A stretch of 64,000 nt of DNA, from NCBI RefSeq assembly GCF_021134715.1, contig NC_060017.1, forward strand, positions 4,898,001-4,962,000, given 5' to 3'. Positions 42,801 through 59,662 of the stretch are shown here, one piece after another; position 1 is the first letter of the stretch; each line of letters opens with the position of its first letter. Below the pieces are notes generated by a model. That model made no database searches, was not told the DNA's origin, and was given only the letters and a program-made list of their open reading frames with translations. The DNA comes from Daphnia pulex. Its lineage: Eukaryota > Arthropoda > Branchiopoda > Diplostraca > Daphniidae. Position numbers and translations under genes: made by a program.

Positions 42801-43888
42801 TTTTCTTTTAATTAAAACAATGTGTTATTGGAATTGCTAATTGAGATTTTCGTTTTGCGTAGAATTGGCCTGTTTATCAGTACTAAAGCTGTTGGAAAGT
42901 TTCAACGCGAAGACGTGACAGATCAATACAAGCACAAAGACAGTAGGTGTCCCTATCAAATTTCAAAATTAGAACTCAATAATGAAATTCTGTTCCATCA
43001 TTTTGTTTCCTTTAGACTCGGCCGAAGAGAGAGAAGTAGTTTTGAAAGCCCTTCGACAGTGTGGACACTTGTATAGTCGATATTACCTCAATGAGGCTTT
43101 AGAGGATGTGCGTTTCGATTTCCAGCTGCGTGATGACATCGTTATTGGATCCCCTTTCAGGTTTGTTTAAACTGCTTTTGTAATTTTTATTGCATAATAA
43201 AACAACTTTGTTTAACTGGCACCGTGCAGTGCCGTCGTGACTGTAGCAAATCGTAATCGCTCCAAGGACTACACCGTAGAAGTTACCCTACGCGTTGACT
43301 CGGTGCTGTACACTGGAAAACTGAAGAGCGTGATCAAAAAAGAAGTCTTTCAACGTACCATCAAAGCTGGAACTGCCCAAAATATTACTCTTCCCGTTTC
43401 CTACGACGAATACGCTCCTGAACTTAGTGACCAATGTGCCTTCAACATTGCCTGCTTGGCCAACGTCAAAGAAACCGAGTTTGAGTTCTTCTCACAGGAT
43501 GACTTCCGCGTTCGTAAGCCTGACATTGCTATCAAGGTAAGATTATCTCTTAAACAAAAGCATATCTCGGTAAAAATTTATGAATCTATTTCAATAGGCT
43601 CCTAAAGAAGTTCCGCTGGGAGAGCAGTTTGACGTGACTGTTTCAATAATTAATCCTCTTCCGAAGGAATTGAATGGCGCTAAATTCGTCATCGAAGGAG
43701 CTGGTCTAGGCGTGCCTCATAAAGTTAGCGTGCCCAACAAAGTGGCGCCAGGCAAGGAGGCCCGTGTTGTTGTTAAAATGACGGCTGCCAAAGCTGGACA
43801 GAAAACTGTCTCTGCCAAATTTTACTCCAAGGAGCTCAATGATGTTGACGGTTATCTCAATATGGATGTAATCGACCCAACTGCCTAA
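39826..43888 (+). CDS. Transglutaminase (annulin-type, protein-glutamine gamma-glutamyltransferase)
   Basis: Thirteen exons give 807 codons plus stop: 39826-40126, 40944-41159, 41244-41377, 41444-41576, 41660-41854, 41951-41985, 42064-42238, 42320-42575, 42640-42795, 42863-42942, 43016-43160, 43230-43536, 43598-43888. The enzyme makes Ca2+-dependent Gln-Lys isopeptide crosslinks. The triad is intact: C387 in FGQCWVF, H446 in [11 protein letters not shown]470 in [10 protein letters not shown]. An N-terminal beta-sandwich precedes the core and two beta-barrels end the protein. The N-terminus MGNRNSS is a myristoylation consensus, followed by a Cys cluster (SCCKCR) that could be palmitoylated, as in insect annulin and Drosophila Tg; membrane anchoring is therefore likely. 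In crustaceans transglutaminases act in haemolymph clotting, cuticle and immunity. Exon 6 is only 35 nt. Confidence 0.95.
40127..40943 (+). other. Intron 1 of transglutaminase (817 bp)
   Basis: The longest intron of this gene; all others are 62-95 bp or little more. It separates the myristoylation/Pro-rich N-terminal exon from the catalytic body (joined codon G|AT = Asp). That layout would allow an alternative first exon without the lipid anchor, but no such exon was identified. Confidence 0.6.
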
Positions 43889-45660
43889 AAATCAAGCTCC
43901 CTTTTTTATATTTTTTCGTTCTGCACCATTTTATTTTTCTCGAGTTTATCTAACTTTAAAGAAGTTTACGCCGGTGATAAAATGTTACCAAAATTAGAAC
44001 AGAGAATTCTAACTCTGAAAAACGATTTGACAGTTATATCAGTTTGACTTTTGATGCGCGCGTACGTTCAATTGGTTGTTGGCAAGCTAAAATAATGGTG
44101 TTTGTTTTAACCGACTACTAATGTGTACTTATTATTATTAATACACGCTAGAGCTATAGCCACCCATGGGCACGACTTGATGATGATTCAAACGATTAAC
44201 TCTCATCAATCGTATGAAGAGAGTAAAAAAGTGTATTTTCGAAAAACAGTAATCTAATGTTGCCACGAATCCCCCGATGGATTGCGGTTGTAACCTCCTT
44301 TCACGATTTTCAATACGAATAATATTTGCAGTTGCAAGTATACAGACAAGGAAAAACAAGTAAGAAGTAAGGCTCACGTGTCACCGCGACTCATTTTTTT
44401 TAACCGTAAGCTTCAATTAAAAATTCGTTGGATGATTCTGGGGAAATACAAAACATTAGCTACATCCATGAGTCATGACTGGTGGTTTAATTTATCTGCT
44501 GTTCTTCTTTATCTTTGAATTGATTTTGTTTTTATGGTGGTCGAGTAAGCCAGTAAGCAAAGTTGCATAAATTGGCAACGCCGCTTTCCAGTTGATTGGC
44601 AACGTGCAGACGATGTATTGGTGTGATTGTGTATTGTGATACTAAAAAAAAAAAATTGCGAACTCCAAATACTTCTTGGTTCGTGCTTTCAAAGGCACGA
44701 ACCTAGTTATTAATTATTAGTTATTATAAACAGTTGTTTATGATTTACACTCATCGTTTTGTTCCACTTTTCTTATTTCTACATAATGTTTGCAAGAAGC
44801 CAAGAAAACCTGTTGTCTCATCAAAGTGTTATGTCAGTGGAGAATGGACATTCCTACTGTTCAAACCAAGTGCTGAATATTTCCCATTACTCACAACTTC
44901 AACCACAAAACTTCAACTTTATGTCCTAAAGTTGTGGATTCAAACTGCATGTGCCCAAACTGCTTGTTCCTCTCAGTTATTGGTACTTCTGATGCAGTGA
45001 TCAAGTAGTGAAATTCTATGGGTTGCCAATTGCCATTCTCTGCAGTTTCTGCCCATCTGCTTCTGCCAGAAAGAAGGAAACAAAAAACATCTGATGACGG
45101 ATAAAGGTATAGTTTTGTTGCTATTTCAGTTTAATCCTTAACATAATTGACAGCATTTGTCTAGTTTTTTTTTAAGCTAAGAAATCAATAGCCACAAAGA
45201 GGTTCTGGTTATTCATTTATATTGATTGTGCAATATATATCATATTAGGGAAATGTTTTAGATCTTTGTTGTTGGTTTAGTTAAGATTTTCCGGTGATCT
45301 AAAACAACTTCAAAATATTCTGAAAAAGTTGATTAATTCTATTTGGCTACTCAAAAATTTTTTACACATCTCTTAAATAATAAAACTTAAATAATCGCGA
45401 TTTGCGTCAGTAATCTAGATGAAAATAAATTCCACATACGACATACACTTGTTAAATTAGAAATTGTTTGAATCGTCTAATGCCTTTTCCGTAAAAACAT
45501 ACCATCGTTTTTTGTCTCATTGGATTGCATATAACTTGCTTAAGACCCACAAAAAAAATTGTTTAGAACCGGGCGCTTTGTTTATTGAATTATGTATTTG
45601 TTTCTTATTAAATTTGGTGTATACAAGTTTTAAACATCGACATTTTCTTTTCCAATTGTA
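43889..45660. other. Intergenic AT-rich region
   Basis: This 1.8 kb follows the transglutaminase stop. It contains the 3' UTR and then AT-rich DNA. No exon, promoter or mobile element was recognised. It ends where the ~207-bp repeat units of the palindrome locus begin. Confidence 0.5.
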
Positions 45661-46050
45661 GAGTTCATCCTGCAGACGCCAGACGGGCCGACCAGTTTGC
45701 ATGTCCTTCACGCTTGAAAATCGCGGGGAACATTACGTGTAAAACTGTCAATGCGGAGGTGAAGAGGTTGGGTGAGAACTCGACGTTTGCATCATTATCA
45801 AACAGGTACAATAGCCGTAAGGCTTAGCCATTTGGTCTTCATTTGATATTGGTTGTTGTAGACCCATCCCCAGCAACGTCAACCTGCAGAAAGAAAAAGG
45901 CCAGTTTGCGTTTCCTTCACTCTCGAAGGTCACGGAGATCTTAAAGTAAAACGTGTCATGCGACGGTGAAGAGGTTGGGTGAGGACGACACGTGTTGCAT
46001 CGTTATCAAGAGCCACAATACCCGCAAGGCTTAAGAGGTGAGGGTGATCA
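45661..46050 (+). repeat. Two outer units of the ~207-bp tandem repeat family
   Basis: Two divergent units lie just outside the palindrome; the second begins ACCCATCCCCAGCAACGTCA at 45862. Shared words are GCCAGTTTGC, CGAAGGTCACGGAGAT, GAGGTTGGGTGAG and CGCAAGGCTTA. The last unit runs directly into a TATA box, just as the array inside the left arm does. Confidence 0.75.
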
Positions 46051-46058
46051 AAAAATCG

Positions 46059-46093
46059 TATAAAAGGAGAGAGGAAAGGCGTTTGAAATCAGT
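46059..46093 (+). promoter_or_regulatory. TATA/initiator promoter of the outer YYTEAP-family copy
   Basis: TATAAAAG at 46059-46066 and initiator ATCAGTTGAG with its A at 46091 (32 nt apart). A conserved leader follows (CATCTCCGACACGGCAACAA), then CAATCATGG|GTAAAT, the short first coding exon of the family. Confidence 0.7.
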
Positions 46094-46178
46094 TGAGTGA
46101 GCATCTCCGACACGGCAACAACTGCTGTGCACTATTTGTCACCAACTGGATTCTTCATTGTGTAATTAGTTCGCAATC

Positions 46179-46696
46179 ATGGGTAAATATATTCTGTTAG
46201 TTGTGTTTTTGTATCAATTTCTATTGTATTTCTCATTTCTTTATATGCCAGTTTTTAAATATTAATGTTCCCAATTGTTTATTGTCTAGTTGTATCAAAG
46301 GAGAGAAAAGACTAAATAATCAGTCGAGTGATTACCTGCGACACGATAACAACTGCATCCTTCGTCGCATTACCAGTTAACAATCACAGGTAAATATTGT
46401 ATTTTTACATGGGATTGTGTATGTATTCATGTTTTTTTTTTTTCTATTTGTTGATATGCCAGCTATTATTGAATGTTTAATATTGTCTAGTAAACTATGG
46501 TGTCATGCTGCACTGCTGCTGTTGGTTGTTGTATCGTTTATGGCTGGTGACGACCACTGGTGTACCGATGTCTTCTGGGTATGGTGAATATTAATGCACA
46601 ACACTGCCGCCTTATTACTCAACATCAACCAACGCTGTTCCAGCTTACTACACCAGGACTCTAAAGTACTACACCACCAAGGCTCCAGAGTATTAA
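46179..46696 (+). pseudogene. Decayed Tyr/Thr-rich secreted repeat gene, outer copy
   Basis: The first exon is intact as ATG G at 46179-46182 with a GTAAAT donor. The expected second exon appears at 46491 (AACTATGGTGTCATG...) but frameshifts disrupt the signal peptide, and only one repeat block remains (KYYTTKAPEY, then stop at 46694-46696). A second leader-like copy (46293-46400) lies inside the intron, with its start codon lost. It reads as a rearranged remnant, not a working gene. Confidence 0.55.
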
Positions 46697-46697
46697 A

Positions 46698-46812
46698 AGT
46701 TGTATCAAAGGAGAAAAGAGGCGCAATAATCAATCGATTTATCCCCGACACGACAGCAACTGCCGTGCACTATTTGTTACCAACTGCATTCATCATCGTA
46801 TATAGGGGTAAA
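46698..46812 (+). repeat. Leader module spanning the left palindrome edge
   Basis: A third copy of the family leader (AATAATCAATCGA, CCCCGACACGACAGCAACTG, then CCAACTGCATTCATCATCG and GGGTAAAT). The homology to the right arm starts at 46771, in the middle of this module. The module is complete here but truncated on the right, which indicates the left copy is the older arrangement. Confidence 0.6.
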
Positions 46813-46953
46813 TTTTCAGTTTTCTACATGGAATTGTGTATCAACTCTCCTTTTTTTTAATTATGCCCGAACCCGAACCCGAGTACTACATCGTGATTCC
46901 ATTCGTTTTAAGCCAAAACCATTTGGTATTAATTTTGATATTGTTTCTTGTAG

Positions 46954-47736
46954 ACCCATCCCCAGCAACGTCAACCTGCAGAAGGAAAGGCTAGTTTGTA
47001 TGTCCTTTACTTTCGAAGGTCACGGAGGTCATTACGTAAAACTGTCAATGCGGTGGTGTAGAGGTTGGGTGAGAACGGGAAGTGTTTCATCATTATCAAG
47101 CAGGTATAATAGCCGCAAGGCTCAGCCATTTGGTATTCATTTTGATATTTGTTGTTGTAGACTCATCCCCAGCAACGTCAAGCTGCAAAAGGAAAGGGCA
47201 GTCCGCCATTCCTTCATGCTCGAAGGTCACGGAGATCAATACGTGAAACGTGTTATGCAGTGGTGTAGAGGTTGGGTGAGAACGGGATGTATTACATAAC
47301 CATTTGGTATTCATTTTGATATATTTTTATGTAGACCCATCCCCAGCAACGTCAACCTAAAGAAGAAAAGGCCAGTTTGCATTTAATTCCTTCATGCTCG
47401 AAGGTCACGGAGATCATTACGTGAAACGTGTTATGCAGTGGTGTAGAGGTTGGGTGAGAACGGGACGTCTTTCATCATTATCAAGCAGGTAAAATAGCTG
47501 CAAACCATAACCATTTGGTATTCATTTTGATATTGGTTTTTTGTATGTCGACCCATCCCCAGCAACTTCAAACTGCAGAAAGAAAGGCCAGTTTGACGAT
47601 CGAAGGTCACGGAGATCATTACGTAAAACGTATCATGCGACGGCGGAGAGGTTGGGTGAGAAAGGTACGTGTTTCATCATTATCAAACAGGTACAATACC
47701 CGCAAGGCTTAAGAGGTGAGGGTGATCAAAAAATCG
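46954..47736 (+). repeat. Tandem array of ~207-bp units, left arm
   Basis: Four units start at 46954, 47161, 47335 and 47551 (steps of 207, 174 and 216 bp). Each begins near ACCCATCCCCAGCAACGTCA and contains CGAAGGTCACGGAGATCATT and GTAGAGGTTGGGTGAGAACG. Each unit is preceded by a TTGTTGTAG- or TTTATGTAG-like acceptor and most contain AAGCAG|GTACAAT, so units look like exon cassettes. They abut the promoter at 47737. Confidence 0.85.
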
Positions 47737-47774
47737 TATAAAAAGGAGACGAAAAAGGCTAGAGACATCAGTCG
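47737..47774 (+). promoter_or_regulatory. TATA/initiator promoter, left arm
   Basis: TATAAAAAGG at 47737 and initiator ACATCAGTCGAG with its A at 47770, 33 nt apart. The flanks match the outer promoter at 46059 closely (GTGATCAAAAAATCG upstream and GCATCTCCGACACGGCAACA downstream), so the promoter module was duplicated with the gene. Confidence 0.7.
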
Positions 47775-47857
47775 AGTGAGCATCTCCGACACGGCAACAA
47801 CTGCAGCGCACTATCTGTCACCATCTGCCTTCTTCACCGTATTGCCAGTTCGCATCC

Positions 47858-48871
47858 GTGGGTAAATATTTTGTCTTTACACGGAGATTTCTATTAATGT
47901 CAATTATTTTCTGTTTGTTAATATGCAAATTCTTATAGAATATTAATCTTAAATTTGTTTACTGTCTAGTTAATAAGGCGTCGTTTGCTGTTCATGAGTG
48001 TTGTATCGTTGATTGATGGGTCGACCACTGGTGTACTGATGTCTCCTCGGTATGGCGGATACCAAACAACAACGCCGCCGCCGCCTTACTACCCAAAAGC
48101 AACTTACGCAACGACCAGTTCCTGCACCGAAGTCTTCAAGTACTACACCACTAAAGCACCGGACTTTAATAGCACAACTTACGCTGCCCCGAGCCACTAC
48201 ACTGACGCCATGAAGTTTTACTCTGCCCCGAGTTACTACACCACCAAGGCGACGTAGCATGACTACGCATGCTGCCCCATCCTACTACACCGAAGCTCCT
48301 AAGTATTACTCTGTTCTCATCTACTTATTGCACCGATTTTCCTAAATACTACTCTGTTCCCAGCTGCTACACCGAGACTCCCGCTGATTACTACACCGAA
48401 GCGGTAAAGTACTACTCTGCCCCGATCTACACAACCACAACTGAGGCGGCCAAGTATTACGCTGCCCTGACTCACTGCACAGAAGCTGCTCTTTCGTACT
48501 ACGTTGAACAGAAATACTACACCGATGCTCCAGTTCACTACACCACGGCCTACGCTACACCACGGCCTACGCTACACCACGGCCTACGCTACACCACGGC
48601 CTACGCTACACCGCGGCCTAAGCTACACCGCACCCTCCAAGTACTACACCGAAGACGCCGCCTACAACAACGTATGCTGCCTAGTTTACTACACCGAGGC
48701 TCCCAAGTACTACATCACTAAGGCGTCGGAATTCTACACGTCTATGTATGCTGCCCCTGCCTACTCCACCGAGGCCCCGCATTATATAACACTGAAGCGC
48801 TCAAGTACTACACTACAATCTGCGCTGCCCCGAGCTACTACACCTACGTCCCGGAGTATTACTGTGCGTAA
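47858..48871 (+). pseudogene. Decayed Tyr/Thr-rich secreted repeat gene A, left arm
   Basis: The expected first exon reads GTG G at 47858-47861 where intact copies have ATG G. The second exon begins after CTGTCTAG at 47970. A frameshift lies at the start of the signal peptide, then the frame is readable as LMSPRYGGYQTTTPPPPYYP followed by repeats such as KYYTTKAPDF, YAAPSHYTDAMKFYSAP. A TAG stop at 48255-48257 and further shifts around the 17-bp minisatellite break it again. The last repeat ends YYCA-stop at 48869. Intact relatives would be secreted Tyr/Thr/Ala/Pro repeat proteins, possibly structural; the function of the family is unknown to me. Confidence 0.6.
48540..48624 (+). repeat. 17-bp minisatellite, five units, left arm
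   Basis: Four exact copies of ACACCACGGCCTACGCT and one variant unit (ACACCGCGGCCTAAGCT) in tandem. The right arm has four units in all (54813-54880). Because 17 is not a multiple of 3, each unit moves the reading frame of the repeat gene. Confidence 0.9.
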
Positions 48872-48959
48872 AAGGAGTCGTAAGAAAAAAGAAGTGCCCG
48901 AACTGCAGTGCCCTTTCTGTCACCAACTGCATTCCTCATCGTGTAACCGATTCGCAATT

Positions 48960-49719
48960 ATGGGTAAATATTCTTTTTCTATTTGTTAATATGCTTGTTA
49001 ATATTTAATATTAATATTTCAATTTATTTACTGTTTAGTCAACTATGGCGTCGTGCTCCTGTTGGGTGTTGTATCGTTGATGGCTGGGTTGACTGCTGGT
49101 GTAGCGATGTCTCCTTGGTATGGCGGAAACTGAACCGCAACGCCGCCGCCTTCCTACACAACTAACGCAACAACCAGTTCCTGCGCCGATGTCTTCAAGT
49201 ACTACACCACTAAAGCACCGGAGTTCTATAGCACAACTTACGCTGCCCCGAGCCACTACACTGATGCCCTGAAGTATTACTCTGCCCCGAGTTACTACTC
49301 CATCTAGGAGACGGAGTACTACATGACTACGCATGCTGCCACATCCTACTACACCGAGGCTTCTAAGTATTACTCTGTTCTCAGCTACTTATTGCACCGA
49401 TTTTCCTAAATGCTAGTCTGTTCCCAGCTGCTACACCGAGGCTCCCGCTGATTTCTCCACCGAGACGGTCGAATACTACACCGAAGCGGCAAAGTACTTC
49501 TCTGCCCCGATCTACACAACCACAACTGAGGCGACCAAGTATTACGCAGTCCCGACTTGCTACACACAGGCCGCTCTTTCGTGCTACGTTGAACAGAAAT
49601 ACTACACTGATGCTCCAGTCTGCTACACCACGACCCACGCTACACCTAGCTTCAACACCGCAGCCCCCAAGTACTACACCGAAGAAGCCGCCTATTACAC
49701 AACTACGTACACTGCCTAG
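48960..49719 (+). pseudogene. Decayed Tyr/Thr-rich secreted repeat gene B, left arm
   Basis: Exon 1 is ATG G at 48960-48963 with a GTAAAT donor; exon 2 begins at 49039 after TGTTTAG. The product would be MVNYGVVLLLGVVSLMAGLT, a good signal peptide, then AGVAMSPWYGGN and a TGA stop at 49131-49133, giving only 32 residues. Beyond the stop the same family repeats continue (KYYTTKAPEFYSTTYAAP, YTDALKYYSAPSYY), with more stops and shifts, to a TAG at 49717. The start and signal peptide are intact, so this copy is dead mainly through one small frame change after YGG. It is the better preserved of the two in the arm. Confidence 0.6.
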
Positions 49720-51294
49720 TTTACTACATCGACGAATTTAAGTATTGCCCCGCTCCAAGCTACCAAACTTAGGTTCATATGTATTGCAATTTTCATGACT
49801 ATATCACCACTGCTCCGACCTACCTAAGTTCTGAAGTATTTCTCTGTATTTGTGAAAGATTGCTGAAATACAAGATTGATTTTTAAATCACAAGTGCATG
49901 TTTCTATTTTCTCCTTAAATACCTTCTCCTGCTGACAATTGCATGATGTGAGAAAATATTTCTGAATGGTATGTAAACTTACAAATAATTGATCTTGCCA
50001 AAACACTGATAAAAATTCAAACTCTTTTACATTTCAATAATATTTAAACTCTTCCCTTTTTATAAACTCAAGATTGAAAGTCCAACAACCAATAATTTTC
50101 TGAAAAATTCAAAGTCCACCACACCTATTTTTCTGCTAAGTCCAGACTTTTGTTTTTGAAAAAAAATTTAAAAAAATTCCCCTTACACGAGATTTTAAAA
50201 AATTTATCGCGAAAAAGATTGATACGAATATTTTATTGCATACCAAATTTATTTTTATAACATTTTACATACATCATATTCATTTTTCCTGTGGCCCCCA
50301 GGGGGGGGGGGCCTGTCGCTTTCTCTACCGCGATAATAACATGATGCAAGTTATATGCAAGTTATTATTTGTTTGGCGCAGAAAGCTTGTTTTATCTAGC
50401 AGTTCTCGACTGTTTCAAACCTGACATTGATCAGTTTGCCTCAGTCGTATACTGCATGATTGAATGAAAACTCAAGACAACAGATCAAACTTTTAACGCA
50501 GCAACACAAAATATCACTGGCAGAGCAATTTCATATGGCATGGATGAAAACGACAACACAAAATTTTTGAAGTCAGGAACCCAGATGGAACAGCTCAGCT
50601 ACAACAGCACAGCAACTTCTGGATTACACTGCAATCGCATTCAGCATACAACGGTGCAATCTGTCTTTGTCACACCTTTCACCATTTGGCTGCAACAAGG
50701 TAACCACCACCAGCGTTAAAGAAGTGTTTGTTATACCTGTTCAAGAAAATCAAGAAAAGAAAATTTAGTTTCGAGAAACACAACTGTGTACATATGCATA
50801 CTCATTATAACAAAAGAATACAAAGAGAAACAGAAAACTACGCAGACTAACAGAATAACTTTGATATCTGATTCAAACTTTCTATAGAAGCAGAGCAAAT
50901 CGGTCTACTCTCTAGTCATGTTAACTAAATCTGTAGTACTTTTGTAAGACATTTCATCAAAATAATTACTTTTTGCTGTTGCATGGGATGAGACGTACGC
51001 CTAAGAACAGGCAGCTAGACACACGAGGCACGCCATTTCGGAAATGTACAGGCACTTCCAAGTCTGAGTTGAATGACTTGGCAAATTGGTTTCTACGTGC
51101 TAAATCATCTGTAAATTTTCACATCAACATTTTACGTTCAATAACAATAGGAAATTAACAGTTAATACCTTTTAATTTTCATCGTGAGAAACGTCACAAC
51201 CGGTCACAACCAACAACCCATTTCTGCTGCGTCTGGGAACAAAATGGCCGGCCGTTGAGCGTCCCTGAAGACACTCGCGCTACCTGGTGGACAT
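49720..51294 (+). other. Inner part of the left arm, no gene recognised
   Basis: AT-rich 3' flank of gene B followed by about 1 kb of mixed sequence with a C5-A-G11 block near 50295-50311. Short open frames here have no family resemblance. The inner edge of the arm is at 51294, in TACCTGGTGGACAT. Confidence 0.55.
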
Positions 51295-52142
51295 CATTTC
51301 AGCCATTTATTCACAGCCACCTGTTGACAGCCATTACTCATCAGATACTTGTGTCGAGTGGTTGTCAAAAGTTTTCCTATTTTTTCATGAAAATTACCGA
51401 TGAATTCATAAGTAAATTCAAGTTCGTTTCTGTGCAAATTGATTGTGATGTGATTTATTCCGTATGTGTGCTGGATTAAATTCAAAATTCCGCAATCTAA
51501 CCTGTAGGAAGGAACAGGAAAGGAAGCAGTAGCATATCATGCAGTTAATACAGGTAAAAACCAATAATGTCTTTAATAGTCACAATTTTTTAAATACTTG
51601 TTCCAAGGCTTAGTTAATATTCGTCTAATTATCAGAAGTTTCTATTGATCTTGGTAGGTCACTACCCCAGTGTGGACATGTTTGTTTTTCTGAACATGTT
51701 TTTCAACGAATAATTCATTGATGTACAAGTATTATTCTTCTTTTAGTTTTAAACTGTTATTTGATGACATAGATTGTATATTCTGTCATAGGGAAAGCTA
51801 TGAGAAATATCATATCATCTAGGCCATGGGTAATCTTCAGGTCTATTTCTATTGCAGCAGCTTAAGAGAAGAATATGAACAAATGCAGGACACATACCAA
51901 CATGTGTTGTATTTTTCTGAATGTTAAAGACGAGCAGTAGGTAGCAATTAACTTTATTTTATTGGAATATTTATTGACATATTTCCTTTAGATTCAACAT
52001 GACTAACTGTTTGATGCCAAAGTTAGTCGGAACTCAACTCACTGTACATACTCTAACACAGATAACTGGTGCTGTTGCCTTTCAGCCACAGGCAGGAATA
52101 TTATTCTTTAGTTCAGAAAATTGTAGTTTATCTTGAACTCCA
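51295..52142. other. Unique spacer (loop) of the inverted duplication
   Basis: These 848 bp separate the two arms and are not part of the inverted homology. The spacer is AT-rich, with no open frame of note, no transposase-like coding and no terminal repeats recognised. It gives the whole structure a stem-loop topology. Confidence 0.75.
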
Positions 52143-53717
52143 ATGTCCACCAGGTAGCGCGAGTGTCTTCAGGGACGCTTAACGGCCGGCCATTTTGTTC
52201 CCAGACGCAGCAGAAATGGGTTGTTGGTTGTGACCGGTTGTGACGTTTCTCACGATGAAAATTAAAAGGTATTAACTATTAATTTCCTATTGTTATTGAA
52301 CGTAAAATGTTGATGTGAAAATTTACAGATGATTTAGCACGTAGAAACCAATTTGCCAAGTCATTCAACTCAGACTTGGAAGTGCCTGTACATTTCCGAA
52401 ATGGCGTGCCTCGTGTGTCTAGCTGCCTGTTCTTAGGCGTACGTCTCATCCCATGCAACAGCAAAAAGTAATTATTTTGATGAAATGTCTTACAAAAGTA
52501 CTACAGATTTAGTTAACATGACTAGAGAGTAGACCGATTTGCTCTGCTTCTATAGAAAGTTTGAATCAGATATCAAAGTTATTCTGTTAGTCTGCGTAGT
52601 TTTCTGTTTCTCTTTGTATTCTTTTGTTATAATGAGTATGCATATGTACACAGTTGTGTTTCTCAAAACTAAATTTTCTTTTCTTGATTTTCTTGAACAG
52701 GTATAACAAACACTTCTTTAACGCTGGTGGTGGTTACCTTGTTGCAGCCAAATGGTGAAAGGTGTGACAAAGACAGATTGCACCGTTGTATGCTGAATGC
52801 GATTGCAGTGTAATCCAGAAGTTGCTGTGCTGTTGTAGCTGAGCTGTTCCATCTGGGTTCCTGACTTCAAAAATTTTGTGTTGTCGTTTTCATCCATGCC
52901 ATATGAAATTGCTCTGCCAGTGATATTTTGTGTTGCTGCGTTAAAAGTTTGATCTGTTGTCTTGAGTTTTCATTCAATCATGCAGTATACGACTGAGGCA
53001 AACTGATCAATGTCAGGTTTGAAACAGTCGAGAACTGCTAGATAAAACAAGCTTTCTGCGCCAAACAAATAATAACTTGCATATAACTTGCATCATGTTA
53101 TTATCGCGGTAGAGAAAGCGACAGGCCCCCCCCCCCTGGGGGCCACAGGAAAAATGAATATGATGTATGTAAAATGTTATAAAAATAAATTTGGTATGCA
53201 ATAAAATATTCGTATCAATCTTTTTCGCGATAAATTTTTTAAAATCTCGTGTAAGGGGAATTTTTTTAAATTTTTTTTCAAAAACAAAAGTCTGGACTTA
53301 GCAGAAAAATAGGTGTGGTGGACTTTGAATTTTTCAGAAAATTATTGGTTGTTGGACTTTCAATCTTGAGTTTATAAAAAGGGAAGAGTTTAAATATTAT
53401 TGAAATGTAAAAGAGTTTGAATTTTTATCAGTGTTTTGGCAAGATCAATTATTTGTAAGTTTACATACCATTCAGAAATATTTTCTCACATCATGCAATT
53501 GTCAGCAGGAGAAGGTATTTAAGGAGAAAATAGAAACATGCACTTGTGATTTAAAAATCAATCTTGTATTTCAGCAATCTTTCACAAATACAGAGAAATA
53601 CTTCAGAACTTAGGTAGGTCGGAGCAGTGGTGATATAGTCATGAAAATTGCAATACATATGAACCTAAGTTTGGTAGCTTGGAGCGGGGCAATACTTAAA
53701 TTCGTCGATGTAGTAAA

Positions 53718-54477
53718 CTAGGCAGTGTACGTAGTTGTGTAATAGGCGGCTTCTTCGGTGTAGTACTTGGGGGCTGCGGTGTTGAAGCTAGGTGTAGCGT
53801 GGGTCGTGGTGTAGCAGACTGGAGCATCAGTGTAGTATTTCTGTTCAACGTAGCACGAAAGAGCGGCCTGTGTGTAGCAAGTCGGGACTGCGTAATACTT
53901 GGTCGCCTCAGTTGTGGTTGTGTAGATCGGGGCAGAGAAGTACTTTGCCGCTTCGGTGTAGTATTCGACCGTCTCGGTGGAGAAATCAGCGGGAGCCTCG
54001 GTGTAGCAGCTGGGAACAGACTAGCATTTAGGAAAATCGGTGCAATAAGTAGCTGAGAACAGAGTAATACTTAGAAGCCTCGGTGTAGTAGGATGTGGCA
54101 GCATGCGTAGTCATGTAGTACTCCGTCTCCTAGATGGAGTAGTAACTCGGGGCAGAGTAATACTTCAGGGCATCAGTGTAGTGGCTCGGGGCAGCGTAAG
54201 TTGTGCTATAGAACTCCGGTGCTTTAGTGGTGTAGTACTTGAAGACATCGGCGCAGGAACTGGTTGTTGCGTTAGTTGTGTAGGAAGGCGGCGGCGTTGC
54301 GGTTCAGTTTCCGCCATACCAAGGAGACATCGCTACACCAGCAGTCAACCCAGCCATCAACGATACAACACCCAACAGGAGCACGACGCCATAGTTGACT
54401 AAACAGTAAATAAATTGAAATATTAATATTAAATATTAACAAGCATATTAACAAATAGAAAAAGAATATTTACCCAT
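53718..54477 (-). pseudogene. Decayed Tyr/Thr-rich repeat gene B, right arm
   Basis: Mirror copy of the left-arm gene B. The start codon is at 54477-54475 and the same early TGA follows the signal peptide (GGN-stop). No difference from the left copy was noticed in the coding part, which suggests that the stop predates the duplication or was spread by gene conversion. Confidence 0.6.
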
Positions 54478-54565
54478 AATTGCGAATCGGTTACACGATG
54501 AGGAATGCAGTTGGTGACAGAAAGGGCACTGCAGTTCGGGCACTTCTTTTTTCTTACGACTCCTT

Positions 54566-55562
54566 TTACGCACAGTAATACTCCGGGACGTAGGTGTAGT
54601 AGCTCGGGGCAGCGCAGATTGTAGTGTAGTACTTGAGCGCTTCAGTGTTATATAATGCGGGGCCTCGGTGGAGTAGGCAGGGGCAGCATACATAGACGTG
54701 TAGAATTCCGACGCCTTAGTGATGTAGTACTTGGGAGCCTCGGTGTAGTAAACTAGGCAGCATACGTTGTTGTAGGCGGCGTCTTCGGTGTAGTACTTGG
54801 AGGGTGCGGTGTAGCTTAGGCCGCGGTGTAGCGTAGGCCGTGGTGTAGCGTAGGCCGTGGTGTATCGTAGGCCGTGGTGTAGTGAACTGGAGCATCGGTG
54901 TAGTATTTCTGTTCAACGTAGTACGAAAGAGCAGCTTCTGTGCAGTGAGTCAGGGCAGCGTAATACTTGGCCGCCTCAGTTGTGGTTGTGTAGATCGGGG
55001 CAGAGTAGTACTTTACCGCTTCGGTGTAGTAATCAGCGGGAGTCTCGGTGTAGCAGCTGGGAACAGAGTAGTATTTAGGAAAATCGGTGCAATAAGTAGA
55101 TGAGAACAGAGTAATACTTAGGAGCTTCGGTGTAGTAGGATGGGGCAGCATGCGTAGTCATGCTACGTCGCCTTGGTGGTGTAGTAACTCGGGGCAGAGT
55201 AAAACTTCATGGCGTCAGTGTAGTGGCTCGGGGCAGCGTAAGTTGTGCTATTAAAGTCCGGTGCTTTAGTGGTGTAGTACTTGAAGACTTCGGTGCAGGA
55301 ACTGGTCGTTGCGTAAGTTGCTTTTGGGTAGTAAGGCGGCGGCGGCGTTGTTGTTTGGTATCCGCCATACCGAGGAGACATCAGTACACCAGTGGTCGAC
55401 CCATCAATCAACGATACAACACTCATGAACAGCAAACGACGCCTTATTAACTAGACAGTAAACAAATTTAAGATTAATATTCTATAAGAATTTGCATATT
55501 AACAAACAGAAAATAATTGACATTAATAGAAATCTCCGTGTAAAGACAAAATATTTACCCAC
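54566..55562 (-). pseudogene. Decayed Tyr/Thr-rich repeat gene A, right arm
   Basis: Mirror copy of gene A, with the same GTG in place of the start codon and the same early frame breaks. It differs by lacking one 17-bp unit and by one substitution in the minisatellite (ACGAT for ACGCT), so its downstream frame differs from the left copy. Confidence 0.6.
54813..54880 (-). repeat. 17-bp minisatellite, four units, right arm
   Basis: Counterpart of 48540-48624 with one unit fewer and one substituted base. This is the only length difference noticed between the arms and accounts exactly for the 4524 versus 4507 bp arm lengths. Confidence 0.9.
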
Positions 55563-55647
55563 GGATGCGAACTGGCAATACGGTGAAGAAGGCAGATGGT
55601 GACAGATAGTGCGCTGCAGTTGTTGCCGTGTCGGAGATGCTCACTCG

Positions 55648-55683
55648 ACTGATGTCTCTAGCCTTTTTCGTCTCCTTTTTATA
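55648..55683 (-). promoter_or_regulatory. TATA/initiator promoter, right arm
   Basis: Mirror of the 47737 promoter: TATA begins at 55683 on the minus strand and the initiator A is at 55650, 33 nt away. It points into the right-arm gene A, towards the palindrome centre, as in the left arm. Confidence 0.65.
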
Positions 55684-56466
55684 CGATTTTTTGATCACCC
55701 TCACCTCTTAAGCCTTGCGGGTATTGTACCTGTTTGATAATGATGAAACACGTACCTTTCTCACCCAACCTCTCCGCCGTCGCATGATACGTTTTACGTA
55801 ATGATCTCCGTGACCTTCGATCGTCAAACTGGCCTTTCTTTCTGCAGTTTGAAGTTGCTGGGGATGGGTCGACATACAAAAAACCAATATCAAAATGAAT
55901 ACCAAATGGTTATGGTTTGCAGCTATTTTACCTGCTTGATAATGATGAAAGACGTCCCGTTCTCACCCAACCTCTACACCACTGCATAACACGTTTCACG
56001 TAATGATCTCCGTGACCTTCGAGCATGAAGGAATTAAATGCAAACTGGCCTTTTCTTCTTTAGGTTGACGTTGCTGGGGATGGGTCTACATAAAAATATA
56101 TCAAAATGAATACCAAATGGTTATGTAATACATCCCGTTCTCACCCAACCTCTACACCACTGCATAACACGTTTCACGTATTGATCTCCGTGACCTTCGA
56201 GCATGAAGGAATGGCGGACTGCCCTTTCCTTTTGCAGCTTGACGTTGCTGGGGATGAGTCTACAACAACAAATATCAAAATGAATACCAAATGGCTGAGC
56301 CTTGCGGCTATTATACCTGCTTGATAATGATGAAACACTTCCCGTTCTCACCCAACCTCTACACCACCGCATTGACAGTTTTACGTAATGACCTCCGTGA
56401 CCTTCGAAAGTAAAGGACATACAAACTAGCCTTTCCTTCTGCAGGTTGACGTTGCTGGGGATGGGT
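55684..56466 (-). repeat. Tandem array of ~207-bp units, right arm
   Basis: Mirror of the left array with the same unit count and spacing. Because two adjacent units are free of stops, a 207-codon open frame (56744-56121, minus) runs through them and beyond the arm's outer edge into unique DNA; it starts at a non-family sequence and is probably fortuitous. Confidence 0.8.
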
Positions 56467-56649
56467 CTACAAGAAACAATATCAAAATTAATACCAAATG
56501 GTTTTGGCTTAAAACGAATGGAATCACGATGTAGTACTCGGGTTCGGGTTCGGGCATAATTAAAAAAAAGGAGAGTTGATACACAATTCCATGTAGAAAA
56601 CTGAAAATTTACCCCTATGTACGATGATGAATGCAGTTGGTAACAAATA

Positions 56650-56977
56650 ACTAAAACTAACCCTCCCTTTTGACTAAAATTATAAACCCAACCACGCCCC
56701 AATACCTTCTGACAAAAATTATAAGTATCTAACTCTAACCCCACCTTTAAACAAAAAAAACTTTACGACCTTCATTTTAATTCAAAGCAAATGACGTTTC
56801 TGACATAGTCCCTCTATCGGCAATTATAAGAACAAAATGTAATGCGTTCATCTGCTTGACAGTTGAGACGTTTGTGTGTTTGAGCGATCGATCACGTCTG
56901 TTGTCCTTTTCAAAAAATGACTTTCTATTCAAGCTAATCCACTTTCAACGAAAATTGACTTTCTTGAACAGCTAGCG
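56650..56977 (+). promoter_or_regulatory. Upstream region of HS2ST
   Basis: About 330 bp between the palindrome edge and the HS2ST start codon. The first 110 bp are simple A/C-rich sequence with repeated short words (AACTAACCCT, TCTAACCCC). No TATA/initiator pair was recognised. The promoter of HS2ST must lie here or within the right arm. Confidence 0.4.
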
Positions 56978-58321
56978 ATGGCGATGAGAACTTGTAACAT
57001 ATCTGCACGATCCGTTTTCCTGTTTAATATTATAACAGTTTTAGTACTTGTGACCTATCTTGTGGATTTAGAGAAAAAAATTGCCAATGCTAAAGTTAGT
57101 TCACAACACAACTCAGATCTGCTCAATACCCAAGTCAATGGTATTAACTCAAAATAATATTATGAATACAAATGTTACATTAACAGAATATCTTGTGAAT
57201 AGGTGCTTTGTTACCTAGTAGTTTTCCATCACAGAATCCAACTTTATTTTACAACCGTGTCCCTAAAACTGGATCAACCTCTTTTGTGGGTCTGGCATAT
57301 GACTTGTGTTCAAGAAACAAGTTTAAAGTGCTTCATGTAAATGTTTCAAAAAATGCACACACCATGTCTTTGAATGATCAGGTAATAATTTTTTTTTAAA
57401 TTAAATTTTCCTGCAAGTAATTGTAGCCTGTTTGTATTATTTGAAGTTACGATTTGCAAGGAATCTAAGCAGTTGGGATTTAAAGCAACCATCATTTTAC
57501 CATGGACATATAGCTTATTTGGATTTCACAAAATTTGGATCCACTGCACCAATATTTATTAACCTTATCAGACAGCCACTTGATAGAATGGTGTCATATT
57601 ATTATTTCCTTCGCTATGGAGATGATTTCCGACCACATCTCATCAGAAGAAAGCAGGGGAACAAAACAGTAATTTAATTTGGAGATGTTGATAATCAAGC
57701 TGGAGTCTAATAGTTGCATTGAAATTCTAGTCATTTGATGACTGTGTGAAAGAAGGACAAACTGAGTGTGATCCAAATAATTTGTGGCTGCAAGTGCCTT
57801 TTTTCTGTGGACATCATGCAGACTGTTGGTAAGAATTTATTTTGGTAAAATCTTAGTCCTTTTTTTGTTAAAATATCGGACTTTCAATCTAGGGTACCGG
57901 GCAGCAGTTGGGCATTTGAACAAGCAAAGAATAATTTAATTAAAAACTATTTATTAGTGGGAGTGACTGAGCAGATGGAAGAATTTGTTGCTGTCCTAGA
58001 AGCAACTTTACCTATTTTTTTTAAGGGATCTCTTAAATTGTACAGACAAGGTAAGTAAGTTCTCGTTTGTGGACAAATGAGCAATTAAAAATATTAATTT
58101 GACACTTAGGATCAAAATCTCATTTACGGAAGACAAATCTTAAGATTCCTCCAAAAGCTGAAACGATAGAGCGGTTTAGAAACTCTACTGTGTGGCAGCT
58201 TGAAAACGAGTTTTACGAATTTGCACTTAGACAGTTTGAATTCGTGAAATCACGAACCCTAAATCCGGATCTTTCTGGCAAAGGGCAGCAGTTTTTTTAC
58301 GAAAAAATTCGTCCAAAATAA
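56978..58321 (+). CDS. Heparan sulfate 2-O-sulfotransferase (HS2ST homologue)
   Basis: Six exons give 343 codons plus stop: 56978-57140, 57203-57381, 57447-57668, 57731-57828, 57893-58050, 58110-58321. The Golgi type II enzyme transfers sulfate from PAPS to O-2 of iduronic acid in heparan sulfate. Seen here: a short cytosolic N-terminus and signal-anchor helix (residues ~12-31), the 5'-phosphosulfate loop [12 protein letters not shown] with K76, the catalytic region [11 protein letters not shown] (H133, H135, matching human H140/H142), and the 3'-phosphate motif [20 protein letters not shown]. Paired Cys ([19 protein letters not shown]) and the C-terminal SHLRKTNLK block also match. Length is close to human HS2ST1 (356). 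The alternative, Drosophila Pipe-like enzymes, is less likely because the heparan-type catalytic block is intact. Confidence 0.93.
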
Positions 58322-58391: not shown

Positions 58392-59662
58392 TCAGCTTTT
58401 TTTCTGAGTGGTAGTTTTAGCAACTGCTCGTTGTTTAGCCTTCTCATACAGTGGCAGCAATTGACCTTTCTCACCAAGCATGCGAAGAAGTTGAACAATT
58501 AAAGGGAGATAGTTGTGCTTGCGCCGAACATTCTCAATTTTCTGACGCTTTCGTTTGCTCTCTTCTTCTTCACATAGCATCAAGAGTCGCTGGATTTCGG
58601 TCTGCATATCGGTGCTGACGACAGGTTGTGACTGAAGCCTTTCAATCTCCTTTTGCCACGCTAGTTTCCGATCAGGAACGATTGCCATCAAGTTGAAATG
58701 AATTTCTCCTTCGCTGTACCTACATTGTTGAAAAATCACATGTTGATCATCCGTCATCCAATCATTAGTACAATGAGATAACCTTTGAATGCGTTTTTCA
58801 ATTATTGGTCTAACAACGTCAATCCAATCAGTTTCGGCTGGGACAGCGCCGAGATCGATAGGACCTTCTTTCAAGCCATCAAGTTCATAGAGGCGGCCAT
58901 CAACGGGGACATATCCAACAAAGTGAAAAGTATCGTCATCCTTTGACGATGCTTTGGAATCAAATTCAAAAAGAGTTTGTCTGCATTTAAAACATCAAAA
59001 GAATTAAAATCACAAGTTAACCCATCTGAAAATGCTCACATTGATGTGCAATGCTATTAAGGGTTGGTTACCTAGCAAACGAGTTGTGTACACTTCGAAT
59101 TGTGTCAGAATTGCTGAGAGCAAGTCCCTTCATGTTGGCATCGAAAGCCTGAGTAAATTCTTTGAATTCACCAAGTGTGGGCCCTAGATGAAGATCAGGA
59201 TGTTTGCAGTTGAGCAGGATACTGATGATGGCTTGGGTTGCACAGGCATTATTGATGACCTGCTTGGCAAAGAAAATTTTGTCCAATCGGCTATCCTGAA
59301 CCACAGTACCCACAACCTCTTCATTGGGTACCCATTTGAAAAGGAAAATGAGTCCATGGATCGGCCTGCAATGATTTCAATGCTGAATTGAATTTCCCTG
59401 TTTTATGTACTACCAATACTCATTTATCAAGAATTACTTTAAGTTATCAAACTGTTCAGGATCCAAACTCCACAGTTCTTCCACTTGAACTCCTTGGACT
59501 TCTACAAAGAAAAATCGAGATAAAACATTACTTCGTGCAAACCTTTGTGACTATTTTCTCATTTCTCATGTGACATTTGCGTGACATACCGAAATCTCTG
59601 ATCAATTCAGAAAATACGCCTGGATCACTTTCGATCAGACACCAATTACCAGCGTCAGCCAT
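58392..59662 (-). CDS. Ubiquitin carboxyl-terminal hydrolase UCHL5/UCH37
   Basis: Five exons give 318 codons plus stop: 59662-59590, 59501-59438, 59365-59072, 58980-58783, 58719-58392. UCH37 is a cysteine deubiquitinase of the 19S proteasome cap (through ADRM1/RPN13) and of INO80. The triad is at the family positions: C87 in NACATQ, H163 in DTFHFVGYVPV, D178 in LYELDGLKEG; human residues are C88, H164, D179. The N-terminus GNWCLIESDPGVFSELI and the LWSLDPE block are typical. The C-terminal half is helical and ends in the ULD-type KEKGQ...YEKAK and basic KTTTQKKS tail that binds RPN13. Intron 4 (58720-58782) is 63 nt and free of stop codons in frame. The gene is tail to tail with HS2ST. Confidence 0.96.

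What the first reader, a model, noticed from the sequence alone, without database searches (positions are those of the whole stretch)
46771..56649. Near-perfect 4.5-kb inverted duplication with an 848-bp loop
Arms 46771-51294 and 52143-56649 are reverse complements with one 17-bp indel and only a few substitutions noticed. Palindromes this large and this similar are either very young, homogenised by gene conversion, or assembly artefacts. The substitutions argue against a simple artefact of a duplicated read set, but a false join of two haplotypes remains possible.
Basis: seen in the sequence. Interest (0 to 1): 0.8.

Follow-up and report, generated by a model that had tools for sequence, protein, structure and literature searches.

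The report
Self-homogenising pseudogene palindrome, many genomic copies
A 10-kb mirror-image stretch of what looks like water-flea DNA is one of a family of mirror-image copies, made of dead gene fragments, whose two halves appear to keep correcting each other while different copies drift apart.

Summary
The inverted duplication is real and exactly where stated: arms 46771-51294 and 52143-56649, 99.5% identical (5 substitutions, one 17-bp tandem unit lost), spacer 848 bp. It is not unique. The held genome (133.19 Mb, 13 contigs; probably Daphnia pulex, inferred) carries a dispersed family. The 150 listed matches to one Tyr-rich query form 94 clusters; 34 are inverted pairs, 33 of them convergent. 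I read 15 palindromes. Arm cores differ by 0-0.42% within 13 of 15, but by 1.4-7.7% from the nearest other palindrome. Within-palindrome substitutions pile up at arm ends (96 of 171 against 29.2 expected), although inner ends are no more divergent between palindromes than the interior. That is the pattern of arm-to-arm gene conversion, not of a uniform young duplication. Spacers are related within groups of palindromes, and the inner-end motif is present on both sides in 13 of 15. The Tyr-rich copies read are broken, so symmetry is kept without evident coding selection. How copies spread, and why some palindromes have their own symmetrical outer DNA, is unresolved. Artefact is unlikely but untested with reads.

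The parts
46771..51294 (+). left arm of the palindrome
   Evidence: 99.5% identical to the right arm, sharp outer junction
52143..56649 (-). right arm of the palindrome
51295..52142 (.). spacer; shorter than the ~1.25-kb spacers of related palindromes C5_11.24 and C12_9.40
   Evidence: 77 matches listed in the genome; 88.8% to the C5_11.24 spacer
51909..52009 (.). spacer piece of about 100-112 bp also present in 9 of the 14 other spacers read, in either orientation
   Evidence: position 655-755 of a spacer query that includes 40 bp of arm
51272..51290 (+). inner-end motif CACTCGCGCTACCTGGTGG, left arm
   Evidence: (C1:4949272-4949290)
52147..52165 (-). inner-end motif, right arm, mirror copy
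   Evidence: (C1:4950147-4950165)
47970..48718 (+). Tyr-rich pseudogene A, left arm (frame with signal-like start stops after ..SYYTTKAT; similarity continues in other frames)
   Evidence: mirror copy in the right arm at about 54719-55450
48961..49720 (+). Tyr-rich pseudogene B, left arm, 83% tandem relative of A
   Evidence: mirror copy in the right arm at about 53717-54476
48538..48629 (+). 17-bp tandem array, 5.4 copies (left)
54808..54882 (-). 17-bp tandem array, 4.4 copies (right); site of the only arm indel
46900..47710 (+). degenerate ~180-200-bp tandem units at the outer part of the left arm; mirror copy about 55710-56520
49900..51294 (+). inner part of the arm without long frames; 85-93% identity in the long matches to other loci
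   Evidence: 44 matches listed, best 40 of 201 candidates scored
45690..46770 (+). truncated extra unit of the same family outside the palindrome, left flank only

Best explanation
The feature is one member of a dispersed family of convergent palindromes on many chromosomes of a Daphnia-like genome. Each arm holds two broken copies of a Tyr-rich, probably secreted protein gene plus about 1.4 kb of DNA without long frames, and the arms face each other across a spacer. Once a palindrome exists, its arms pair with each other (intrachromatid hairpin or cruciform, or between sister chromatids) and are overwritten by gene conversion, so mutations in the arm interior are erased or copied to both arms, while differences survive near the arm ends where pairing runs out. 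Different palindromes accumulate differences independently. Loss of one arm from near the centre would give the single-arm copies. Shown: the family, within-versus-between divergence, end-concentrated differences, related spacers and inner ends, broken frames. Inferred: the conversion mechanism, the direction from palindrome to single arm, the species. Unresolved: how palindromes reached new loci.
For: Arm cores differ by 0-0.42% within 13 of 15 palindromes, against 1.42-7.74% to the nearest arm of any other palindrome; these 13 pairs each join in the tree. Of 171 substitutions in 14 palindromes, 96 lie in the terminal 500 bp against 29.2 expected, 0 of 20,000 simulations; all 12 palindromes that have substitutions exceed expectation; 43 of 54 against 10.7 without the three largest contributors. 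Taken apart: inner ends 34 of 109 against 12.5, outer ends 62 of 80 against 10.0, 0 of 100,000 simulations each. Control for the inner end: between palindromes the inner 500 bp are not more divergent than the interior (6.2% and 6.3%, 120 pairs). Inner-end motif on both sides in 13 of 15; a spacer piece shared by 10 of 15. 34 of 94 clusters are inverted pairs, 33 convergent, 25 with equal top scores. No Tyr-rich frame over 225 residues in the 18 loci read. The implied conversion rate, 2 x mutation rate / interior divergence (19 substitutions in 45,375 bp; mutation rates 2.3-4.5e-9 quoted in PMC12926508; relation recalled), is about 1-2e-5 per site per generation, within the range of Daphnia rates quoted there for conversion or loss of heterozygosity (6.5e-6 to 1.8e-4).
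Against: Two of 15 palindromes do not show it: C11_1.99 (1.8% within, 1.76% to its neighbour) and C12_9.40 (8.5% within, 7.3% to the nearest other). Inner-end differences are seen in 7 of 12 palindromes with substitutions, not all. For outer ends no mutation-rate control was possible; they lie in or beyond the tandem units. C7_11.2 and C11_1.99 have symmetrical outer DNA that the other loci read lack, which copying of one palindrome does not predict and which suits formation in place. C1_5.23, C5_8.04 and C5_8.30 have a spacer type of their own. Site patterns uniting arms across two palindromes, expected from an old left/right split that escaped conversion, are absent in 9 of 11 comparisons (at most 4 sites); this fits conversion but fits repeated formation as well. 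The palindromes read were chosen from the best matches to this window; outer ends were not reached in 4 of 14 counted. One genome, no reads.
Confidence: 0.75

Rival explanations
1. Each palindrome formed in place and recently, by fold-back synthesis at the conserved inner stem of a dispersed single-arm unit, copying the arm and some local flank; arms are alike because they are young.
For: Symmetrical outer DNA peculiar to C7_11.2 and to C11_1.99; the inverted inner-end motif flanks the spacer in 13 of 15 palindromes and also in two single-arm copies, C9_0.81 and C9_0.95.
Against: A young uniform duplicate should not have its differences piled at the ends; C9_0.61, for example, has no substitution over 5 kb and 24 in the last 600 bp. 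Of 8 single-arm copies read at the inner end, two stop at the same base and the others differ or were not reached, and three keep right-side remnants, as expected from loss of an arm. Formation in place followed by conversion remains possible.
Confidence: 0.15
2. Assembly artefact: false join of haplotypes, or consensus polishing that erased real differences in the arm interior.
For: No reads could be checked; one genome only. Inverted duplicates are reported to lower nanopore base-calling accuracy (PMC7229812, search listing with start of abstract only).
Against: The same architecture recurs at 15 loci read, each with its own variants and flanks. C12_9.40 and C11_1.99 keep many interior differences in the same assembly.
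Confidence: 0.07
3. A fold-back type transposable element whose long inverted ends are the arms.
For: Matches to one Tyr-rich query lie on 11 of 13 contigs, relatives outside the family included; arm matches come in tens of rows on several contigs; some groups share outer limits, for example C11_1.99 and C7_11.2.
Against: No outer terminus common to the groups among the limits printed; no Pfam match in the 3 arm frames tested; arms contain broken relatives of a family with long open frames elsewhere. Target duplications were not tested.
Confidence: 0.1

Closest known systems
Convergent and divergent inverted-repeat gene pairs of Caenorhabditis (Zhao et al. 2007, PMC1803023; abstract, Results part 1 of 2 and Discussion read)
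   Same: Inverted gene pairs with near-identical arms, where symmetry is better conserved than sequence; a four-gene convergent case (HSP16) resembles the A-B-spacer-B-A layout; gene conversion is proposed there.
   Different: There a few loci with annotated genes compared between species; here many loci in one genome, with broken genes, compared between paralogous palindromes.
Human Y and X chromosome palindromes kept alike by arm-to-arm gene conversion (PMC3723533, PMC8981503; search listing with start of abstract only)
   Same: Arms over 99% identical; homogenisation by conversion.
   Different: Those are sex-linked (and mostly much larger, recalled); these are dispersed over many contigs and carry pseudogenes.
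Palindromes reported in parthenogenetic animals, Adineta vaga and Folsomia candida (Jaron et al. 2020, PMC7953838; passages read)
   Same: Palindromes discussed as sites of conversion where meiotic recombination is rare.
   Different: That survey used gene annotations, available for 23 of its 26 species, D. pulex not among them; it counts 19 palindromes in A. vaga and 15 (table) or 16 (text) in F. candida.
Maize Mu killer (PMC3440606; search listing with start of abstract only)
   Same: Inverted duplication of a gene proposed to yield a long hairpin transcript.
   Different: No evidence of transcription or silencing here.

Membership tests
Gene-conversion-maintained palindrome | Long arms, more than 97% identical, around a short spacer | tested here: met
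   for this window
Gene-conversion-maintained palindrome | Arms more alike within a palindrome than to related palindromes | tested here: met
   13 of 15 palindromes, this window included (0.11% within, 3.49% to nearest); C11_1.99 and C12_9.40 fail
Gene-conversion-maintained palindrome | Differences concentrated at arm ends | tested here: met
   this window alone has 3 of 5 substitutions in the terminal 500 bp, too few to test by itself
Gene-conversion-maintained palindrome | Palindrome older than the divergence of its copies | tested here: inconclusive
   Shared inner ends and related spacers fit; symmetrical local outer DNA does not; no second species available
Gene-conversion-maintained palindrome | Conversion seen directly among individuals or in pedigrees | not testable with these tools
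   one genome, no reads
Fold-back or other TIR transposon | Fixed outer termini shared by the family | tested here: not met
   limits of homology shared inside some groups, different between groups (looked at by eye)
Fold-back or other TIR transposon | Target-site duplications | not tested
   no empty sites compared
Fold-back or other TIR transposon | Transposase or tie to an autonomous element | tested here: inconclusive
   No Pfam match in the 3 arm frames tested; other family copies not screened
Hairpin-RNA (hpRNA) locus | Long inverted repeat with short exact matches to a target gene family | tested here: met
   91 and 35 positions of exact 21-base match to two relatives with long open frames, 0 in window 1-44000 (unrelated DNA, a weak control)
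Hairpin-RNA (hpRNA) locus | Transcribed and diced into small RNAs | not testable with these tools
   no RNA data

The most novel reading that the evidence does not exclude
The palindromes are a genome-wide set of long hairpin-RNA loci: broken inverted copies of the Tyr-rich gene family, transcribed through, whose small RNAs repress the intact genes, with arm-to-arm conversion keeping each hairpin perfect.
Probability: 0.07. Interest if true: 0.85.

Novelty: new variant of a known kind. Interest (0 to 1): 0.55.

Why it matters
Arm-to-arm conversion is best known from sex chromosomes (search listings, and recall), where palindromes carry selected genes. Here one kind of palindrome exists at many places in one compact genome with broken genes, so conversion rate, tract length, end decay, arm loss and dependence on spacer length (120 bp to 2.7 kb in the 15 read) can be measured on replicates without evident coding selection. 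If the genome is Daphnia pulex, it is a cyclical parthenogen (recalled), the setting in which palindromic conversion has been proposed to matter, and one that the published survey of parthenogens lists among those it could not screen (PMC7953838, passages).

Tried and rejected
tRNA and Rfam scans found nothing (on the window, on 45000-58000). Pfam found nothing in the 3 arm frames tested; of two relatives with long open frames, one (548 aa) has a Cornifin match below the curated cut-off and one none, which I take as low complexity. GC content does not separate palindromic arms from the 3 single-arm copies (by eye), so GC-biased conversion is not supported. I first thought C9_0.95 showed a lost right arm because it shares the right flank of C9_0.61; that flank proved to be a dispersed repeat, so I dropped the argument. 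Site patterns of an ancient left/right split shared by two palindromes were absent in 9 of 11 comparisons; this does not decide between an old palindrome with conversion and repeated formation. One fixed end for the single-arm unit was rejected: 2 of 8 stop at the same base (both on C9), 5 elsewhere, and 1 was still in spacer at the end of the stretch read. Literature: the rows shown by searches (15 of 216; 10 of 62; 11 of 11; 7 of 7; 12 of 12; 12 of 106) include no report of this family in Daphnia, judged by titles and starts of abstracts; one search (three peptide strings) returned no paper. One search was for the assembly; passages of PMC12102780 and PMC7023750 added nothing used here. Subscription journals and most preprints are not held.
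Full report
Observation. The inverted duplication is present exactly as described: arms 46771-51294 and 52143-56649, 4524 alignment columns, 5 substitutions and one 17-bp deletion, spacer 848 bp. The deletion is one unit of a 17-bp tandem array inside the arms. The window lies at C1:4898001-4962000 of a held genome of 133,188,837 bases in 13 contigs. I take it to be D. pulex; that is an inference. Labels such as C9_0.61 are mine: contig and position in Mb.

It is a family. Searching the genome with the spacer, the inner arm and the outer arm returned 77, 44 and 88 rows. Many are pairs on opposite strands a few kilobases apart with near-equal scores. These searches score only the best 40 candidates, so counts are lower bounds. 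A 78-residue Tyr-rich query gave 156 matches from 150 scored of 1461 candidates; 150 rows were listed. Grouped within 12 kb they form 94 clusters on 11 contigs; 34 hold both strands, 33 convergent and 1 divergent, and 25 of 34 have equal top scores in both orientations. Some clusters are relatives with long open frames, not members of the palindrome family.

Palindromes read. I fetched 20 stretches chosen from the best matches. With the window they give 15 palindromes and 3 single-arm copies. Over 2.0-2.7 kb of arm core, the two arms differ by 0-0.42% in 13 of 15 palindromes, while the nearest arm elsewhere differs by 1.42-7.74%. The window copy is 0.11% within and 3.49% from its nearest relative, C1_4.44. 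The exceptions are C11_1.99 (1.8% within, 1.76% to neighbour) and C12_9.40 (8.54% within, 7.32% to nearest). The tree joins the two arms of each of the 13.

Gene conversion. If arms were alike only because they are young, differences should be spread evenly. They are not. In 14 palindromes (C12_9.40 left out because its arms align only in pieces) 171 substitutions were counted, 96 in the terminal 500 bp against 29.2 expected; 0 of 20,000 simulations reach this. All 12 palindromes that have substitutions exceed expectation; 2 of 14 have none. For 4 of 14 the outer end lay beyond the fetched DNA, so only the inner end was counted. Without C9_0.61, C11_2.07 and C11_1.99 it is 43 of 54 against 10.7. 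Taken apart, inner ends hold 34 of 109 against 12.5 (present in 7 of 12 palindromes) and outer ends 62 of 80 against 10.0 (above expectation in 9 of 9); 0 of 100,000 simulations reach either. Only the best aligned block per palindrome was used; in C1_5.23 a further outer block has 12 differences in 716 bp. The inner ends are not mutation hot spots: between palindromes the inner 500 bp differ by 6.2% and the interior by 6.3%. No such control exists for the outer ends. C9_0.61 is the clearest case: no substitution over 5 kb, then 24 in the last 600 bp. The interior holds 19 substitutions in 45,375 bp (C11_1.99 and C12_9.40 left out), 8 of them in C11_2.07 and 5 in C7_11.2. With the mutation rates quoted in PMC12926508 and the equilibrium relation divergence = 2 x mutation / conversion (recalled), conversion is about 1-2e-5 per site per generation, inside the range of conversion and loss-of-heterozygosity rates quoted there (6.5e-6 to 1.8e-4).

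Common anatomy. The motif CACTCGCGCTACCTGGTGG and its mirror flank the spacer within 4 edits in 13 of 15 palindromes; in C10_13.6 and C5_8.04 it remains on one side. A spacer piece of about 112 bp is shared by 10 of 15, in either orientation; C10_13.6 and C2_1.21 share other spacer pieces with these; C1_5.23, C5_8.30 and C5_8.04 have a spacer type of their own beyond the first tens of bases. Spacer lengths run from 120 bp to 2.7 kb. The window spacer matches the 1.28-kb C5_11.24 spacer with losses near both ends. Some groups share outer limits, such as C11_1.99 with C7_11.2. In the window each arm carries two tandem Tyr-rich copies (83% alike), so the layout is A-B-spacer-B-A.

The genes are broken. 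In the 13 of 18 loci where a frame with the signal-like start was listed, it is 90-165 residues long; it ends at the same ..TTKAT in 8 of 18. The longest Tyr-rich frame in the 18 loci is 225 residues (frames of 90 or more were listed, introns not modelled). Relatives elsewhere have open frames of 357 to 617 residues, so I call the copies read pseudogenes. Copies not read may be less broken: one search lists open frames of 257 residues at the C5:10.04 pair and 391 at C4:4.35.

Single-arm copies. Inner ends of 8 were read (C9_0.81, C9_0.95, C7_8.87; five more). C9_0.81 and C9_0.95 stop at the same base, about 23 bp into the mirror arm; L048 keeps a short right-side remnant; C7_8.87 stops at the far end of the spacer; L046, L047 and L050 lose similarity within about 30 bp of the arm end (L046 has later short spacer-like matches); L049 was still in spacer when the stretch ended. 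This fits loss of an arm near the centre rather than one fixed end, but numbers are small.

What does not fit. C7_11.2 and C11_1.99 have about 1 kb or more of symmetrical outer DNA that the other loci read lack, short stretches apart. In C7_11.2 it is low-copy, its best relatives lie on the same contig, and one of them is 1.3 kb from a Tyr-rich open frame of 347 residues. Copying one palindrome to a new site does not give this. Formation in place, outward growth by copying past the end of homology, or copying of the core into an existing inverted gene pair would. I cannot choose. Conversion after formation is supported under any of them.

Other readings. A transposon with long inverted ends is not supported: no outer terminus common to the groups (target duplications not tested). 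An assembly fault is unlikely, since 15 loci show the architecture with their own variants and two keep interior differences, but reads were not available. A hairpin-RNA role is not excluded: the window arm shares exact 21-base matches with two relatives (91 and 35 positions, 0 in window 1-44000).

Known work. Caenorhabditis inverted gene pairs (PMC1803023; abstract, Results part 1, Discussion) are the closest parallel. The survey of parthenogenetic animals (PMC7953838, passages) states that no annotation was available for D. pulex, which was not screened. The rows shown by searches hold no report of this family. I rate it a new variant of a known kind.

Noticed in passing
window 51272-51290 and 52147-52165; 96 places in the genome: The inner-end motif CACTCGCGC(T/C)ACCTGGTGG occurs 96 times at up to one mismatch, 0 for the reversed control, ten of them on contig C11 away from the two C11 palindromes read; the spacer search listed nothing on C11, but it scored only 40 of 162 candidates. 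Its complement resembles the CTCF core CCACCAGGTGGCGC (recalled, binding not tested).
   Followed up: partly
L044 (C1:4611500-4618800): A divergent palindrome with a Tyr-rich open frame of 357 residues in each arm, arms at least 3.5 kb and 98.4% alike, lies about 0.3 Mb from the window.
   Followed up: partly
C5, C4 and C1 of G000: Family copies recur at roughly 0.1-0.3 Mb steps over long stretches, by eye.
   Followed up: no
C9:1338894-1363357: Five equal-scoring copies of a repeat, two on the plus and three on the minus strand, mostly at about 5.46-kb steps: possibly another palindrome of tandem units.
   Followed up: no
C6 and C3, six pairs: A 211-bp repeat next to C9_0.61 occurs as equal-scoring opposite-strand pairs 4-12 kb apart: perhaps an element with long inverted ends.
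   Followed up: no
window 45690-46770: A truncated extra unit of the family lies outside the palindrome on the left side only.
   Followed up: partly
window 43237-43605 and 58392-58874: Flanking gene fragments: transglutaminase C-terminal domain and ubiquitin hydrolase UCH_C.
   Followed up: no
L025 and L020, outer parts: Symmetrical outer DNA that the other loci read lack; origin unexplained.
   Followed up: partly
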